Shown here: piece after piece, positions 24,404-50,305 of the stretch
Position numbering within the stretch: the stretch's first letter is position 1
How the letters are laid out: each line of letters opens with the position of its first letter
NCBI RefSeq assembly: GCF_012515855.1
Contig: NZ_JAAYXO010000141.1
Coordinates: 1 to 52,202, forward strand
Length of the DNA: 52,202 bases
Origin: Gordonia sp. (in: high G+C Gram-positive bacteria)
GTDB lineage: Bacteria > Actinomycetota > Actinomycetes > Mycobacteriales > Mycobacteriaceae
Reading direction: 5' to 3'
Made by a program: the position numbers and the translations under genes
The notes under the pieces: model-generated
Told to the model about the DNA's origin: nothing
The model's input: the letters and a program-made list of their open reading frames with translations, nothing else
The model's database searches: none

Positions 24404-24639
24404 TAACAGGTTGATAACAATGCGGACACGGGACGGGTGCCAGCGGCCTGAACTGGGATGACGCCAAAACGGCCGAAAATTCGGTTACCGGCGAGTAATC
24501 AGGCCCCCCTGAGAACGGATGATCAATCCGATCGAACGACGTAGTGTTCATGTCGGTCGCCAGCCCGGTGACCGACAACCAACTGTTCAACCGGTCGCGC
24601 CCAGCCTCGCTTCCGCCGGATGAGCAACCGTTTAAATGC

Positions 24640-25471
<832 letters not shown>

Positions 25472-35294: not shown

Positions 35295-36458
35295 ATGAAA
35301 GCTGTTGTGTGCCAGGAAGGGACGCTCGACGTCCGCGAAGTCGCGAAGCCCGAGCCCGGACCCGGGCATGTGCTGATCAAGGTGCTGCGCGCCGGGATCT
35401 GCGGGTCCGACCTGCACGCTCGCACGCACGGCGACGTGGTGGCCGACATCGGGGAGCAGGTCGGCTACGACCACTTCATGCGCCCGGCGCACGCGGTGGT
35501 GATGGGGCACGAGTTCGTCGGCGAGGTGGTCTCGTACGGACCCAAGTGCCGCAAGCGGTGGAAGCCGGGGACGCCGGTGGTCGCGATGCCGTTGATCCGG
35601 CACGACGGCGAAGTCGAGATGGTTGGACTGTCGGCCAACGCGCCCGGTGCCTACGCGGAGTACCTGCTGATCCAGGAGGACCTCGCCATGCCGGTGCCCG
35701 ACGGCCTCAGCGCCGACCTCGCCGCCCTGACCGAACCGCTCGCCGTCGCACACCATGCCGTGCGCCGCGGCGAGGTCAACAAGCGCGACGTGGCGGTGGT
35801 GGTCGGCTGCGGCCCGATCGGTCTCGCGGTGATCCTGATGCTGAAGGCCGCGGGGGTCAAGAAGATGGTGGCGAGCGACCTGTCGGAGATGCGCCGCAGC
35901 CTCGCGCTCGAATGCGGCGCCGACGTGGTGGTCGACCCCGCGGTCGACAGCCCCTGGGACGCGGTTCCCGCGCAGGACAAATACTTCACTCGGGCCGGCG
36001 ACCTCTTCGCCGTCGCCTTCGACGCGATGCACACGCTGCAGACCGTGCCGGGAATCCCCTGGTGGCGGTTGATGGGCATGGCCGACAAGCTGGCACTGAC
36101 CCCGCGGGGGCCGGTGGTCTTCGAGTGCGTCGGCGTCCCCGGAATCATCGACAATCTGGTCGCCACCGCACCGTTCCGGTCACGCGTCGTGGTGGTCGGC
36201 GTGTGCATGGAGCCCGACACCTTCGCGCCCGCGATGGCGAGCAACAAGGAGATCGACCTGCGCTTCGTGTTCGGCTACGACCCCGCGGAGTTCCGCAACA
36301 CCTTGCACATGATCGCGGCCGGAAAGGTGAAGCCCCAGCCGCTCCTGACCGGGACGGTCGGCCTCGCCGGCACCGCAGCGGCGTTCGACGCCCTCGCCTC
36401 GGCTCAGCACCACGCAAAGGTCCTCATCGACCCGCAGAGCGCCGCGGTCGCACCGTAG
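35295..36458 (+). CDS. zinc-dependent alcohol dehydrogenase-like protein
   Basis: This 387-residue medium-chain dehydrogenase has GICGSDLHART (catalytic zinc Cys/His region) near 34-44, GHEFVGEV near 73-80, and a Rossmann fold at VVVGCGPIGLAVILMLKAAGVKKMVASD. The structural-zinc lobe with four Cys is missing (only one Cys after GHE), so at most the catalytic zinc is kept. An inserted aromatic-rich stretch (MHTLQTVPGIPWWRLMG) follows the fold. The ATG is embedded in a 6-bp hairpin (TGGGAG-AGTG-CTCCCA). The substrate is unknown. Confidence 0.88.
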   Translation: MKAVVCQEGTLDVREVAKPEPGPGHVLIKVLRAGICGSDLHARTHGDVVADIGEQVGYDHFMRPAHAVVMGHEFVGEVVSYGPKCRKRWKPGTPVVAMPLIRHDGEVEMVGLSANAPGAYAEYLLIQEDLAMPVPDGLSADLAALTEPLAVAHHAVRRGEVNKRDVAVVVGCGPIGLAVILMLKAAGVKKMVASDLSEMRRSLALECGADVVVDPAVDSPWDAVPAQDKYFTRAGDLFAVAFDAMHTLQTVPGIPWWRLMGMADKLALTPRGPVVFECVGVPGIIDNLVATAPFRSRVVVVGVCMEPDTFAPAMASNKEIDLRFVFGYDPAEFRNTLHMIAAGKVKPQPLLTGTVGLAGTAAAFDALASAQHHAKVLIDPQSAAVAP

Positions 36459-36478
36459 GTGCGACGCGGCGCCGCCGG

Positions 36479-39175
36479 CTAGTCCGGGCTGCGGTGCCTC
36501 GCCTTGCGCACCTGGTACGTCGGATCCACACGGGGGCGGGCGACGGTGTCGTCCGACTCGGTCCCCGCGAAGCCGTCGAACGGATGCTCGCCGGTCTCCT
36601 TGTTGATCCAGAAGTGGGGGCCGGTGTCCTCGTTGGAGCCGAGGAACTGCGGCTCGCTCTCCGGCGACGGCTCCACGACCTCGGGATCGTGGGTCACGGT
36701 CCGGACCTCGTCGGGGAGTTCGTCGACGAACGTCTCGACTTCCTTCTCCACCACGCGCCGCACGATCACCGGCTTCTCGACCACGACGATCTGCTCGATC
36801 GGCTTCTCGACGATCTTCTCGACCTCGACGTAAACCGGCTTCTCGACGATCTTCTCGATGATGTGCTCCACCGGGCGTTCGACGATGCGCTCCACCACGT
36901 GGTCCACACGCTTCTCGATCACGTTCTCGATCAGGACCGGGGTCTGCACGTTCTTCTCGAATTCGCGGCGCACTTCCTGCTCCACGACCTTCTCGACGAT
37001 CTCGGGGCGCTCGACGATCTTCTCGACGACGTGCTCGACGGGCTTGTCGACCACCTTCTCGACGACCTCCGGCCGCTCGACGATGCGCTCCACGATCTTC
37101 TCGACCGGCAACTCGATGACCTTCTCGACCACGTTGGGTCGCTCGATCACCCGCTCGACCACCCGGTCGACCGGCTTCTCGATCACGTTGTCGACGATGT
37201 TCGGGACTTCCACCATCCGGTCGACCACGCGGTCGACGGGCTTCTCCACGATCTCCTCGACGATGTTCGGCATCTCGATGACCTTCTCGATCACGTGGTC
37301 CACCGGCACCTCGACGATCTCTTCGATCAGGTTCGGCTTCTCGACCACCCGCGTGACGGTGTGGTCGACCGACTGCTCGACGACCTCTTCAATCACATTG
37401 GGAATCTCGACGATCCGCTGCACCACGCGATCGACCGGCTGCTCCACCGTCTTCTCGATGACGTTCGGCACCTCGACGACCTTCTCGATCACATGGTCCA
37501 CCGACTTCTCGACCACCTTGTCGGTGACGTTCGGGACCTCGACGACCCGCTCGATCTCGTGGTCGACGGGCTTCTCCACGATCTTCTCGATCAGCTCGGG
37601 CTTCTCGACGACGCGCTCGACGACGTGCTCCACCGGGCTCTCGACGATCTTCTCGACCACGTTCGGCTTCTCGACGACCCGCTCGATGACGTGATCCACC
37701 GACTTCTCGATCAGCTTCTCGGTGACGTTCGGGATCTCGACGACCCGCTCCAGTTCGCGGTCGACGGGCTTCTCGATCACCTTCTCCACGACATTGGGAA
37801 CCTCGACGACGCGCTCGATCACGTGGTCGACCGGCTTCTCGACAGGCTTGTCGACGATCTGCTCGACGACCACCTCGCGCGGTACCTCGACCTCCTTGAT
37901 GGAGGCCTTCTCGACGACGATCTCGACTTCCTTCTCCACGACCTTCTCGACCGTCTTGTAGACGATCTTCTCGACCGGGAGCTCGATGGTCCGCTCCACC
38001 ACCTTCAGCGCCACCGACTCCTCGTCGGCTTCGACGACCTTGTCGACGACCTTCTCCACCGGCGTGTAGACGATCCGCTCGACCTCGACCTCGACCTCGC
38101 GCTCGACGATCTTCTCGACCGGAACCTCGCGAATGACCTCGACGATCTTCTCCACCGGCTTCTCGACGACCTTCTCGACGATCATCTCCACCGGGACTTC
38201 CACCACGTTGTCGACGATCGTGACGATCGGCTTCTCGACCATCCGCTCCACGCTGATGGGCTTCTCGACCACGTCGTCGACGATCTCGACCAGCAGCTTC
38301 TCGACCATCCGAGACACTTCGGTGGGCCGCTCGACGATCTCGTCGACCACGGTCACCAGCAGCCGCTCGACCAGCCGCTGGATCTCGACGGGCTTGTCGG
38401 CGATCTCGTCGAGGACGGTCACGACCGGCTTCTCGACGTATCGGGGGATCTCGATCTCTTTGTCGACGATCTCGTCGACCACGGTCACAATCGGCTTCTC
38501 GATGACGCGCGCGACGTCGACGGGGGTCTCGACGATGTCGTCGACCACGGTCACGACCGGCTTCTCAACCATCCGCGACAGCTCAACAGGCTTCTCGACA
38601 ACCTCATCAACCACCGTCACGACCGGCTTCTCAACCATCCGCGACAGCTCAACAGGCTTCTCGACAACCTCATCAACCACCGTCACCACGGGCTTCTCAA
38701 CCATGCGCGACAGTTCGACGGGCTTCTCGACGAATTCGTCGACGTACGAGACGGCGACTTCTTCCACGAAGCGCGGCACGTCGACATGGCGCTCGACGAT
38801 GTTGTCGATGACGGTGACGACCGGCTTCTCCACCCGGCGGTGGATGTTGACGGGTTTGTCGGTGACCTCGTCTTCGATCGTCACCACCGGACGTTCGACG
38901 ATCCGGGAGAGGGTGACGGGCTTGTCGGCGACCTCATCGACCACCGTCACCACCGGCTTCTCGATGAGCCGCGACACGGTGGCCGGCTTGTCGATGACCG
39001 TGTCGACAGTGTTGACCACCAGCCGCTCGACGATCCGCTCCAGCGTGACCGGCTTCTCGACCACGGTCTCGACCGGGTTCTCCACCAAGCGTTCGACTAC
39101 GAACCCGCGGTCGACGACGTTGTCGACAACGTTCAGCACTGCATCGTTCTCCTGCGGCGTCCCGTCGTTGGCCAT
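36479..39175 (-). CDS. giant V/E/K/P-rich 22-residue repeat protein (alveolin/articulin-like)
   Basis: This 898-residue protein has no family I recognise. Residues 27-334 are fourteen 22-residue units with consensus VEKPVVTVVDEV followed by VEKPVELSRM. Residues 445-752 are fourteen units of VEKPVDHVIERV followed by VEVPNVVEKV. The 110 residues between (five unit lengths) are looser V/E/K repeats, and irregular repeats run on to about 815. The C-terminal tail is non-repetitive and includes the protein's only Trp (HFWINKETGEHPF, about 854-866). There is no signal peptide, membrane segment or Cys, so it is probably a cytosolic, structural or filament-forming protein. GAGGAGGGG precedes the ATG. 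It is convergent with the dehydrogenase and alone in its transcription unit. Confidence 0.85.
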   Translation of the reverse strand: MANDGTPQENDAVLNVVDNVVDRGFVVERLVENPVETVVEKPVTLERIVERLVVNTVDTVIDKPATVSRLIEKPVVTVVDEVADKPVTLSRIVERPVVTIEDEVTDKPVNIHRRVEKPVVTVIDNIVERHVDVPRFVEEVAVSYVDEFVEKPVELSRMVEKPVVTVVDEVVEKPVELSRMVEKPVVTVVDEVVEKPVELSRMVEKPVVTVVDDIVETPVDVARVIEKPIVTVVDEIVDKEIEIPRYVEKPVVTVLDEIADKPVEIQRLVERLLVTVVDEIVERPTEVSRMVEKLLVEIVDDVVEKPISVERMVEKPIVTIVDNVVEVPVEMIVEKVVEKPVEKIVEVIREVPVEKIVEREVEVEVERIVYTPVEKVVDKVVEADEESVALKVVERTIELPVEKIVYKTVEKVVEKEVEIVVEKASIKEVEVPREVVVEQIVDKPVEKPVDHVIERVVEVPNVVEKVIEKPVDRELERVVEIPNVTEKLIEKSVDHVIERVVEKPNVVEKIVESPVEHVVERVVEKPELIEKIVEKPVDHEIERVVEVPNVTDKVVEKSVDHVIEKVVEVPNVIEKTVEQPVDRVVQRIVEIPNVIEEVVEQSVDHTVTRVVEKPNLIEEIVEVPVDHVIEKVIEMPNIVEEIVEKPVDRVVDRMVEVPNIVDNVIEKPVDRVVERVIERPNVVEKVIELPVEKIVERIVERPEVVEKVVDKPVEHVVEKIVERPEIVEKVVEQEVRREFEKNVQTPVLIENVIEKRVDHVVERIVERPVEHIIEKIVEKPVYVEVEKIVEKPIEQIVVVEKPVIVRRVVEKEVETFVDELPDEVRTVTHDPEVVEPSPESEPQFLGSNEDTGPHFWINKETGEHPFDGFAGTESDDTVARPRVDPTYQVRKARHRSPD
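36920..39097 (-). repeat. 66-bp coding repeat array, 33 unit lengths
   Basis: DNA encoding residues 27-752 is exactly 33 x 66 bp long. The two outer blocks (residues 27-334 and 445-752) keep one phase; 445-27 is 19 x 22. Units are diverged at DNA level except for the pair at 38553-38684. Confidence 0.85.
38553..38684 (-). repeat. two identical adjacent 66-bp copies
   Basis: 38553-38618 and 38619-38684 are identical, each beginning ACGACCGGCTTCTCAACC on the plus strand. A partly diverged copy follows. These are the only exact neighbours in the array and indicate a recent duplication or homogenisation. Confidence 0.85.
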
Positions 39176-39344
39176 CGCCCCTCCTCGTCATACGACTTCC
39201 TCACCGAAACCTTTCCACGGTTCGGCGGGAACAACTACCTGAACTCTAAGGTTACGCGGCAGAGTGCGAATCAGCGTGATCGGCGAAGCCGAATACATAC
39301 TGCATTCAAATGATTTCGACCCGAAATACCCTGTCGCCAAACAC

Positions 39345-39380
39345 AAAAGAAGCCCCCCAATAATTCGGGGGGCTTCTTTT
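39345..39380 (-). terminator. terminator of the tRNA Glu-Asp-Phe unit
   Basis: AAAAGAAGCCCCCC pairs perfectly with GGGGGGCTTCTTTT (14 bp) across an 8-nt loop. Read leftward it ends the tRNA operon 5 nt after tRNA-Phe, with a T-rich 3' arm. Confidence 0.9.
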
Positions 39381-39384
39381 GGTG

Positions 39385-39458
39385 TGGCCAGAGTCGGGAT
39401 CGAACCGACGACCTTCCGCTTTTCAGGCGGACGCTCGTACCAACTGAGCTACCTGGCC
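39385..39458 (-). tRNA. tRNA-Phe (GAA)
   Basis: This 74-nt cloverleaf has acceptor GGCCAGG, D-arm AGCTCAGTTGGTACGAGC, anticodon loop CTGAAAA (GAA), T-arm GTTCGATCC and discriminator A. CCA is not encoded. Confidence 0.97.
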
Positions 39459-39488
39459 GGAGGTGCCGGTAGAAACCGAAACCAAAAG

Positions 39489-39562
39489 CGACCCTGACGG
39501 GACTCGAACCCGCGACCTCCGCCGTGACAGGGCGGCGCGCTAACCAACTGCGCCACAGGGCC
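39489..39562 (-). tRNA. tRNA-Asp (GTC)
   Basis: This 74-nt cloverleaf has acceptor GGCCCTG, anticodon stem GCCGCC and loop with GTC, T-arm GGTTCGAGTCC and discriminator G. It is 30 bp upstream of tRNA-Phe in the same leftward unit. Confidence 0.97.
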
Positions 39563-39608
39563 ATATTCTATTTTGTTGCCGTGAGAACCTTAGCAGATCC
39601 TCATTGCG

Positions 39609-39681
39609 TACCCCCTACGGGATTCGAACCCGCGCTACCGCCTTGAAAGGGCGGCGTCCTAGGCCGCTAGACGAAGGGGGC
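39609..39681 (-). tRNA. tRNA-Glu (TTC)
   Basis: This 73-nt cloverleaf has GCCCCCT acceptor, CGTCTAGCGGCCTAGGACG D-arm, anticodon loop CTTTCAA (TTC), TTCGAATCC T-loop and discriminator A, with G1-U72 as usual for tRNA-Glu. It is the first tRNA of the Glu-Asp-Phe unit. Confidence 0.97.
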
Positions 39682-49357: not shown

Positions 49358-50305
49358 CTAGACGGCGATGCGCTCCTTGCGGGCGGCTTCGCGCGCCAGG
49401 AAGCGGTCGCGCTGTTCTTCGAATCGCTTGGCGTCCACCTCGGCGGACTCGAGCCAGGTCGCGAGCTCGTCACGAGCCTGTTCGCCGCGACCGGTGAAGT
49501 CGTCGCGCTCGAAGATCTTCCACTTGCGCATGATCGGCCACACCACGTCGTCCAGGTGCTGGCGGATGTCGTAGATGCCGTGCTTGGCCATCAGCAGACT
49601 CATCTTGCGGAAGTTCGGCATGCCGATGCCCGGCATGTCGAAGTTGGTGACGACGCTGGTGATGGCCTCCATCGCCTGGTCGGGCGCCAGATCGAGCGCC
49701 GCCGCACAGATGTTGCGGTAGAAGATCATGTGCAGGTTCTCGTCGGCCGCGATGCGCTGCAGCATTTTGTCCGCCACCGGATCGTTGCACGCCTTGCCTG
49801 TGTTCCGGTGGCTGACCCGCGTGCCGAGCTCCTGCACGGCCACGTACGCGACGCCGCGGAGCAGCCCCGAGAGGTCGTCGGAGTGCGCGCCCTTGGTCAT
49901 GTTGGTCATGCGGTCGTTCTCGAGCGCCACCGGGTCCACGCCGCGGGTCACGACCAGGTAGTCGCGCATCACGATGGCGTGCCGGTTCTCTTCGGCCGTC
50001 CAGCGACCGACCCAGGTTCCCCACGCACCGTCGGGCGAGAAGTACTCGGTGATCTCCCGGTGATACGACGGCAGGTTGTCCTCGGTGAGCAGGTTCAGCG
50101 TCATCGCGGCCTTCGCCACCGGGTCCAGACGCGACTGCTCCGGGTCCCAGTCATCGCCGCCCATCGCGGCGAAGTTGCGTCCCTCATCCCAGGGCACGTA
50201 GTCGTGCGGATGCCACTCGCGAGCCAGCGACAGATGCCGGTTCAACTCGGCTTCCGCGTTGGGCTCCAGTTCAGTGAGCAGTTGGACTTGAGTTAGATCG
50301 GGCAC
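49358..50305 (-). CDS. acyl-ACP desaturase (DesA-type)
   Basis: This 315-residue soluble di-iron desaturase resembles mycobacterial DesA1/DesA2, which introduce a double bond into acyl-ACP. Iron-binding motifs are EENRHA (in WTAEENRHAIVMRDYL) and DENLHM (ADENLHMIFYRN), with a further Glu in LNLLTEDNLP. The GTG start follows GGGAGG by 9 nt. It may supply unsaturated acyl chains to lipid or mycolic acid metabolism; the neighbouring WS/DGAT uses acyl-CoA. Confidence 0.93.
   Translation of the reverse strand: MPDLTQVQLLTELEPNAEAELNRHLSLAREWHPHDYVPWDEGRNFAAMGGDDWDPEQSRLDPVAKAAMTLNLLTEDNLPSYHREITEYFSPDGAWGTWVGRWTAEENRHAIVMRDYLVVTRGVDPVALENDRMTNMTKGAHSDDLSGLLRGVAYVAVQELGTRVSHRNTGKACNDPVADKMLQRIAADENLHMIFYRNICAAALDLAPDQAMEAITSVVTNFDMPGIGMPNFRKMSLLMAKHGIYDIRQHLDDVVWPIMRKWKIFERDDFTGRGEQARDELATWLESAEVDAKRFEEQRDRFLAREAARKERIAV

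What the first reader, a model, noticed from the sequence alone, without database searches (positions are those of the whole stretch)
36479..39175. Bacterial alveolin/articulin-like repeat protein of unknown function
An 898-residue Cys-free protein is about 85% V/E/K/P-rich repeat, built on V-E-x-P cores at 12/10 spacing. This composition and spacing are what defines alveolin and articulin cytoskeletal repeats in protists, and I know of no bacterial function for such a protein. It lacks signal peptide and membrane segments and is encoded alone, so a filament, scaffold or mechanical role in the cytosol is plausible. Alternatives are a secreted adhesin (no signal supports this) or an apolipoprotein-like 22-mer helix protein (the prolines and V content argue against this).
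Basis: partly seen in the sequence, partly recalled or inferred. Interest (0 to 1): 0.88.

Follow-up and report, generated by a model that had tools for sequence, protein, structure and literature searches.

The report
Fold-back alveolin-like repeat protein, Gordonia
A Gordonia bacterium encodes a long valine- and glutamate-rich repeat protein that resembles the cortical skeleton proteins of protists; its two repeat arrays usually keep matched lengths among relatives, which suggests that the chain folds back on itself into a rod.

Summary
In detail: a Gordonia genome encodes an 898-residue, Cys-free, acidic protein, 89% V/E/I/K/P-rich repeat, without signal peptide or membrane segment by hydropathy. 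It is a conserved gene: 16 of 59 Gordonia genomes carry it, dN/dS is 0.07-0.27 in nine pairs, and relatives occur in another genus and in MAGs.

It is not one 12/10 repeat. Two different 22-residue arrays, A and B, flank a middle of 12-mers. In 14 of 16 measured orthologs A is exactly 51 residues longer than B, while unit numbers run from 9/7 to 17/15; the window's own protein is one of the two exceptions. Among close species, units came or went in both arrays near the middle. Best reading: a chain folded back at the middle, A against B, forming a long rod.

In seven loci, not the window, the next gene encodes an LGFP-transmembrane protein that could tie the rod to the wall. The alveolin resemblance is partial, and Caulobacter articulin-like proteins are in print. 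AlphaFold gave no usable model, and hydrophobic periodicity favours helix over strand.

The parts
36479..39175 (-). gene of the 898-residue repeat protein (stop 36479-36481)
   Evidence: Open frame and translation; orthologs and purifying selection
39178..39185 (-). ribosome-binding site AGGAGGGG, 2 bases before the ATG
   Evidence: GGAG-type site before the start in all 12 genes printed
39131..39175 (-). non-repeat head, residues 1-15, variable
   Evidence: Alignment A1
38204..39130 (-). array A, residues 16-324: 14 units of 22 residues, type VVEKPVELSRMVEKPVVTVVDE
   Evidence: Unit division; lag-22 identity 58%
37799..38203 (-). middle (proposed turn), residues 325-459, 12-mers of alveolin type such as EKIVE.P
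   Evidence: 99, 115 or 135 residues in orthologs, extra residues aligned to one place
38015..38029 (-). ADEES, residues 383-387, proposed tip inside the 20-residue insertion of this clade
   Evidence: Alignment A3; inference
36959..37798 (-). array B, residues 460-739: about 13 units of 22 residues, type PNVVEKVVEKPVDHVVERVVEK
   Evidence: lag-22 identity 61%
36731..36958 (-). post-B segment, residues 740-815, again 12-mer-like, well conserved
   Evidence: Alignments A1, A2
36482..36730 (-). C-terminal tail, residues 816-898, with conserved W...TGEHP motif
   Evidence: W856, T861, G862, H864, P865 invariant in the 13 rows of A1
36430..36500 (-). strong hairpin at the 3' end, between this gene and the convergent dehydrogenase gene
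   Evidence: -46.1 kcal/mol, z -3.3
39345..39380 (-). terminator-like hairpin between tRNA-Phe and this gene
   Evidence: Read by eye from the sequence printed; not among the 2 sites of the consensus scan
39384..39681 (-). tRNA-Phe, tRNA-Asp, tRNA-Glu upstream; conserved neighbours in Gordonia

Best explanation
It is a cytosolic structural protein whose chain folds back on itself at the middle segment, so that the N-terminal array A lies antiparallel to the C-terminal array B (plus the post-B segment). This gives a long thin rod or ribbon, by arithmetic about 130 nm if both arms are extended strands (about 60 nm if helical), with a conserved tail at its open end. Such rods probably associate into a cortical scaffold, as alveolin ribbons are thought to do. 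In what looks like the older gene arrangement the rod is made together with a membrane protein that has wall-binding LGFP repeats outside and a short conserved peptide at its inner end, which would tie the rod to the envelope; no such partner was found in the window's lineage. Shown: two arrays, their matched lengths, the operon-like neighbour in related loci, and selection on the protein. Inferred: pairing of A with B, orientation, secondary structure, polymerisation, position in the cell and the tether.
For: In 14 of 16 orthologs with the gene on one contig, A minus B is exactly 51 residues while the states run 9/7, 11/9, 14/12, 15/13 and 17/15 units. Only 1 of 120 permutations of these five states keeps a constant difference. 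On the gene tree this needs several separate matched changes, two of them inside one trio of close species. For G035 against G046 and G046 against G004 the best placements put the gained or lost units 3-6 units before the middle in A and 3-6 units after it in B, as an antiparallel fold-back predicts; a parallel one would put the B change toward the far end. Antiparallel A:B scores better than parallel A:B (6.6 against 2.3), and its best register puts the turn at middle offset 42, beside the place (offset 43) where other clades carry extra residues (my arithmetic). Plasmodium IMC1e is modelled as an intramolecular beta-ribbon of two repeat regions (PMC12465100, passages read). Neighbour in 7 loci: in the 6 sequenced through, an N-terminal hydrophobic segment, two LGFP matches, one further membrane-type segment and a conserved NNAxG end, starting 1 base inside the stop codon in three genomes; the seventh, G011, by profile match only. 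No signal or membrane segment in the repeat protein.
Against: The window's own protein and G013 break the rule by one unit (14/13). AlphaFold gave no fold: pLDDT 32.6 full length (one weak strand per A unit) and 37.9 for the middle fragment, where the only elements were two helices. Hydrophobic moment favours helix, not strand. B:B antiparallel pairing scores higher (9.2) than A:B (6.6), and A:A nearly as high (5.4). Indel placement rests on margins of 0-5 identities; for G035 against G004 the DNA score prefers other B units (1, 3, 4), and the distant pair G350/L041 puts A units 5-8 against B units 2-4, which does not fit well. Pairing between two molecules would couple lengths equally well. 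No full-length partner gene was found in 12 of 16 Gordonia carriers, the window's genome included, so it is not essential to whatever the protein does there. No localisation or filament data exist.
Confidence: 0.42

Rival explanations
1. An amphipathic-helix protein of the apolipoprotein, perilipin or synuclein kind: 22-residue units punctuated by proline, each 10-12 residue stretch a short amphipathic helix, lying flat on the inner membrane or on lipid inclusions, possibly as an antiparallel belt.
For: Mean 11-residue hydrophobic moment at 100 degrees 0.51 (A) and 0.56 (B) against 0.32 in shuffles, and below shuffles at 160-180 degrees; long-range moment at 98.2 degrees is the highest harmonic for A and second highest for B; helices in the AlphaFold fragment. 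Antiparallel belts would also couple array lengths.
Against: Valine 29.5% and prolines every 10 or 12 residues are unusual for such helices (recalled); helix confidence in the model is low (about 57); the full-length model shows weak strands instead.
Confidence: 0.25
2. A largely disordered, strongly acidic polymer used as a spacer or bristle (or as a length-setting tether) between its conserved ends, without a defined fold.
For: Both AlphaFold models have mean pLDDT below 40; net charge -90, pI 4.63.
Against: Low dN/dS in both arrays (0.19-0.31 in two pairs, against 0.41-0.43 in the tail), fixed 22-residue phase and exact length coupling in 14 of 16 are more constraint than a spacer needs.
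Confidence: 0.15
3. A true member of the alveolin/articulin superfamily, acquired from a protist or sharing descent with it.
For: IMCp above cut-off in hmmscan, 11 of 13 members of alignment A1 with E <= 0.01, EKIVEVP-like motif (20 loose matches).
Against: No IMCp hit in the whole-genome search of this genome or of any of the 396 sampled; DUF445 matches 9 of the same 13; 22-mers rather than 12-mers; the listed protein hits are mostly repeat proteins of unrelated architectures; the gene is syntenic within Gordonia. Convergence on a short repeat is easier.
Confidence: 0.08
4. A secreted or surface adhesin exported by a non-classical route.
For: Highly repetitive, Cys-free and acidic, as many surface proteins are (recalled).
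Against: No signal peptide or membrane segment by hydropathy. In the loci with a neighbour, the neighbour carries the LGFP part and the N-terminal hydrophobic segment.
Confidence: 0.05

Closest known systems
Alveolins (IMC1 family, Pfam IMCp PF12314) of Plasmodium and Toxoplasma
   Same: V/E/K/P/I-rich repeat core, EKIVEVP-like motif, variable head and tail, match to IMCp above cut-off; in PfIMC1e two repeat regions are modelled as an intramolecular beta-ribbon (PMC12465100, passages read)
   Different: 22-mer arrays instead of 12-mers except in the middle; no cysteine; matched array lengths not mentioned in the passages read; bacterial; fragile IMCp match
Articulins and other epiplastins, including Caulobacter articulin-like proteins (PMC6212826, PMC4303705; passages read)
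   Same: Low-complexity medial domain high in V+I (38%) and low in A+G (1.1%), with many acid-base dyads (121 charged dyads of any kind counted); precedent in bacteria
   Different: 3 VPV, below the more-than-3 rule for articulins; one VYV by eye, while the Caulobacter proteins have many; other phylum; two-array layout with coupled lengths
Metagenomic repeat proteins, many with PF12314 and helix-hairpin-helix-type Pfam domains, named by JGI 'predicted flap endonuclease-1-like 5' DNA nuclease'
   Same: VEKPVEKIVE-type repeats, apparently bacterial
   Different: Other terminal domains by the precomputed Pfam column. I read only P0011, P0036, P0006 and P0056, none of the helix-hairpin-helix ones: no 22-mer A/B arrays or TGEHP tail in those four
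LGFP-repeat wall proteins of Mycobacteriales (Pfam PF08310)
   Same: The neighbour gene in related loci carries LGFP repeats (6 of 6 proteins tested)
   Different: Here they head a one-pass membrane protein with a conserved end; full-length relatives in 59 Gordonia genomes were found only next to the repeat gene, with 30 candidates scored per genome

Membership tests
Alveolin (IMCp) | Match to Pfam PF12314 above its gathering score | tested here: inconclusive
   31.1 bits against 21.1 by hmmscan; 0 of 4 shuffled, reversed or permuted controls match; but the whole-genome search with the model gives none in this genome at E <= 0.001
Alveolin (IMCp) | 12-residue tandem periodicity | tested here: not met
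   Arrays A and B have period 22; only the middle shows 12-mers; criterion from PMC4303705
Alveolin (IMCp) | Location in a cortical filament network | not testable with these tools
   No localisation data
Articulin (PMC6212826) | More than 3 VPV modules in the medial domain | tested here: not met
   3 VPV; rule read
Epiplastin (PMC6212826) | Medial domain high in V+I, low in A+G, flanked by ordinary head and tail | tested here: met
   V+I 38%, A+G 1.1% of residues 16-815; numeric limits of the paper were not read
[quoted passage not shown]
   Weak strands full length, weak helices in the fragment; hydrophobic moment favours helix
Exchangeable apolipoprotein / perilipin type | Amphipathic alpha-helical periodicity in 11- or 22-mers | tested here: met
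   Moment at 100 degrees well above shuffles, below them at 160-180; definition recalled, not from a call
Exchangeable apolipoprotein / perilipin type | Lipid binding | not testable with these tools
   Needs liposome or inclusion binding

The most novel reading that the evidence does not exclude
Mycobacteriales possess an alveolin-like skeleton: a roughly 100-nm fold-back rod of paired 22-residue arrays whose lengths co-evolve unit by unit, co-expressed in the ancestral form with an LGFP-transmembrane linker that ties a cytosolic scaffold to the arabinogalactan wall.
Probability: 0.25. Interest if true: 0.85.

Novelty: new variant of a known kind. Interest (0 to 1): 0.6.

Why it matters
If right, a walled bacterium uses the same repeat principle as the cortical skeletons of malaria parasites and euglenids, and natural length variants show which two parts of the chain touch. 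That would give a simple test of how alveolin-type ribbons are built, in a Gordonia laboratory strain. It would also add an envelope-linked scaffold to a group whose cell shape is explained mainly by polar growth (recalled).

Tried and rejected
Chance or mistranslation: rejected (start site, dN/dS, synteny). The long plus-strand frame (1491 aa) is the antisense reading of a GC-rich gene (GC3 0.93) and was not pursued.

Solved structures: no relative; the three weak hits (E 0.25-0.37) are Pumilio-type proteins. NCBIfam: none. Protein database searches (best 120 of 545 and of 1545 listed) showed repeat proteins of other architectures and none that I could identify as a Gordonia ortholog; why is not known. 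AlphaFold: both jobs gave unusable models, so no fold search was made.

Assembly collapse as the cause of the window's missing A unit: an exact 71-base tandem repeat lies at that spot, but G013, another assembly, has the same A count, so the exception is probably real. G013 has a run of N in B, so its B count is uncertain.

The partner gene in the window's lineage: no remnant at E <= 1e-3 in the 11 stretches tested, three of them with short flanks; no full-length match at E <= 1e-20 in 12 of 16 Gordonia carriers, with 30 candidates scored per genome; no end motif in those 12. That motif pattern also missed G046 and G011, which do have the partner, so it is not a sensitive test.

Dropped before the unit count: G011 and G051 (gene split over contigs) and the MAG pieces L042/L043, L045, L046; of these only L042's A array (12 units) and middle (99) were measured. 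G013 was left out and of the moments. L041 and G350 are long branches that meet in the tree. The presence counts rest on 9, 15, 2 and 2 scored candidates per genome at most.
Full report
What is there. The minus strand of the window, 36479-39175, encodes an 898-residue protein. The genus is Gordonia: of 18 loci in the named genome scan, 10, from nine species, are Gordonia and include the nine best; contigs of the same lengths recur among the unnamed same-genus genomes. Residues 16-815 are repeat; the protein has no cysteine, pI 4.63, net charge -90, and no stretch hydrophobic enough for a membrane segment.

Anatomy. There is not one repeat. Residues 16-324 are 14 units of 22 residues (array A), residues 325-459 a middle built of 12-mers, residues 460-739 about 13 units of a different 22-mer (array B), residues 740-815 a conserved 12-mer-like segment, and residues 816-898 a non-repeat tail with an invariant W and a TG-HP motif.

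Distribution and selection. 16 of 59 Gordonia genomes, this one included, carry the gene. In a sample of 401 genomes of the family 17 have a match: 15 Gordonia, one genome of another genus with the full architecture (G350) and one weak 35.7-bit match that I do not count. In a sample of 397 of the order 6 have one, four Gordonia and two at the threshold. MAGs labelled Mycobacterium, Mycobacteriaceae or actinobacterium carry whole or cut copies (L041, L042, L043, L045, L046). In the seven named Gordonia loci with flank on both sides (L032-L037, L039) the gene lies between a tRNA-Glu/Asp/Phe cluster (2.4 kb away in L032) and a pair that I read as YceI family and adenylate cyclase (gene names are my reading). 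In the six non-carriers examined other genes fill this stretch. dN/dS over nine pairs is 0.07-0.27; for the window's protein the tail is freer (0.41-0.43) than the arrays (0.19-0.31).

Matched arrays. In 16 orthologs with the gene on one contig (14 Gordonia, G350, L041), array lengths were measured between conserved anchors. Fourteen have A minus B = 51 residues exactly: 331/280 (10 genomes), 375/324, 309/258, 243/192 and 199/148. Two do not: the window's protein (309/280) and G013 (309/278, with an N run in B). On a tree made from the parts that align without doubt the five matched states need several matched changes, two within the trio G046, G035, G004; the exceptions are confined to one clade. 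For three pairs of that trio and one distant pair every placement of the missing units was scored. G035 lacks an A unit 3-5 before the middle and a B unit 3-4 after it, relative to G046. G004 has extra A units 5 and 6 before the middle and extra B units 4 and 6 after it, relative to G046. The third pair, G035 and G004, gives A 5-7 and B 4-7 by protein but B 1, 3, 4 by DNA. The distant pair G350/L041 (A 5-8, B 2-4) is poorly resolved. Margins are 0-5 identities. A single duplication cannot lengthen both arrays, because the middle lies between them; something must hold the two lengths together. Direct contact, unit against unit, is the simplest cause.

Orientation. Equal distance from the middle points to an antiparallel fold-back. 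Complementarity of the mean 22-mers agrees: antiparallel A:B 6.6, parallel 2.3; but B:B antiparallel scores 9.2 and A:A 5.4, so the score does not single out A:B. The best A:B register would centre the turn at offset 42 of a 99-residue middle, beside the place (offset 43 as MAFFT aligned it) where other clades carry 16 or 36 more residues; the chance of such agreement is roughly one in four.

Secondary structure is open. AlphaFold failed. The sequence resembles alveolins, for which others modelled a twisted beta-ribbon (PMC12465100, passages). But the hydrophobic moment is strong at 100 degrees and weak at 160-180, and the 22-residue period fits six turns at 98.2 degrees. An isolated two-stranded ribbon need not be amphipathic, so this does not exclude beta; it does keep an amphipathic-helix protein alive as a rival.

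The neighbour gene. In G004, G046 and G035 the next gene starts one base inside the stop codon (ATG at L120:9674, L121:11365, L016:2964); in G350 the gap is 8 bases, in L043 about 60, in L041 about 134, by my choice of starts. It encodes an N-terminal hydrophobic segment of signal-peptide type, LGFP repeats (6 of 6 proteins, 95.7-107.7 bits against 22), one further hydrophobic segment, a linker and a conserved end with NNA-G. A genus search (30 candidates scored per genome, E <= 1e-20) finds full-length relatives in 4 of 59 genomes, G035, G046, G004 and G011, each next to the repeat gene or its piece; the other hits score 136 bits or less and stop short of the end. So seven loci have the pair, and in 12 of 16 Gordonia carriers, the window's genome included, none was found. 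That the LGFP part lies outside and the conserved end inside is inferred from the order of segments, and that LGFP repeats bind the wall is recalled; of the one paper on the repeat that I opened only the abstract was held (PMC2447325).

Comparison with the known. Alveolins and articulins have a 12-residue period (PMC4303705, passages) and alveolins the heptad EKIVEVP; epiplastins are defined by composition, and articulins by more than 3 VPV (PMC6212826, passages). This protein meets the composition, has 3 VPV, and has 12-mers only in the middle. IMCp matches above cut-off in hmmscan, in 11 of 13 orthologs at E <= 0.01 (DUF445 in 9 of the 13), and in none of four controls, but is not found by the genome search (0 of 396, this genome among them), where the only one of 14 control genomes to ring is Caulobacter. 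Two of the papers already mention Caulobacter articulin-like proteins; a third calls articulins euglenozoan-specific (PMC4448529, passages). The library searches listed, by title and start of abstract, no paper on such a protein in Gordonia or Mycobacteriales; the library holds open-licence papers only.

Verdict. Real, conserved, under selection, and likely structural. It works, most likely, like an alveolin-type ribbon that pairs its own two halves; membership in the alveolin family is not shown.

Noticed in passing
window 35295-36458: The zinc-type alcohol dehydrogenase gene (my reading) next door points the opposite way relative to the repeat gene compared with L004, L032 and L038: a local inversion or an assembly error.
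   Followed up: partly
window 24627-24817: c-di-AMP riboswitch (ydaO/yuaA leader), 60.2 bits.
   Followed up: no
window 49923-49990: Match to the Rfam family ASdes (TB sRNA), 74.4 bits.
   Followed up: no
L120 6543-6619, L121 8442-8518, L040 3074-3148: In three loci of the alkaliphila/hirsuta kind a second tRNA-Asp gene sits just before the repeat gene.
   Followed up: no
L041, L045, L046: In three MAGs the repeat gene lies divergent to one and the same gene block (I read it as alaS, ruvX, mltG, aroE and a RarA-like ATPase; not searched), a second conserved location.
   Followed up: partly
middle segment, residues 325-459: The five measured genes with the LGFP-transmembrane neighbour all have a 99-residue middle; the eleven without it have 115 or 135. 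One change on the tree suffices, so it may be coincidence.
   Followed up: partly
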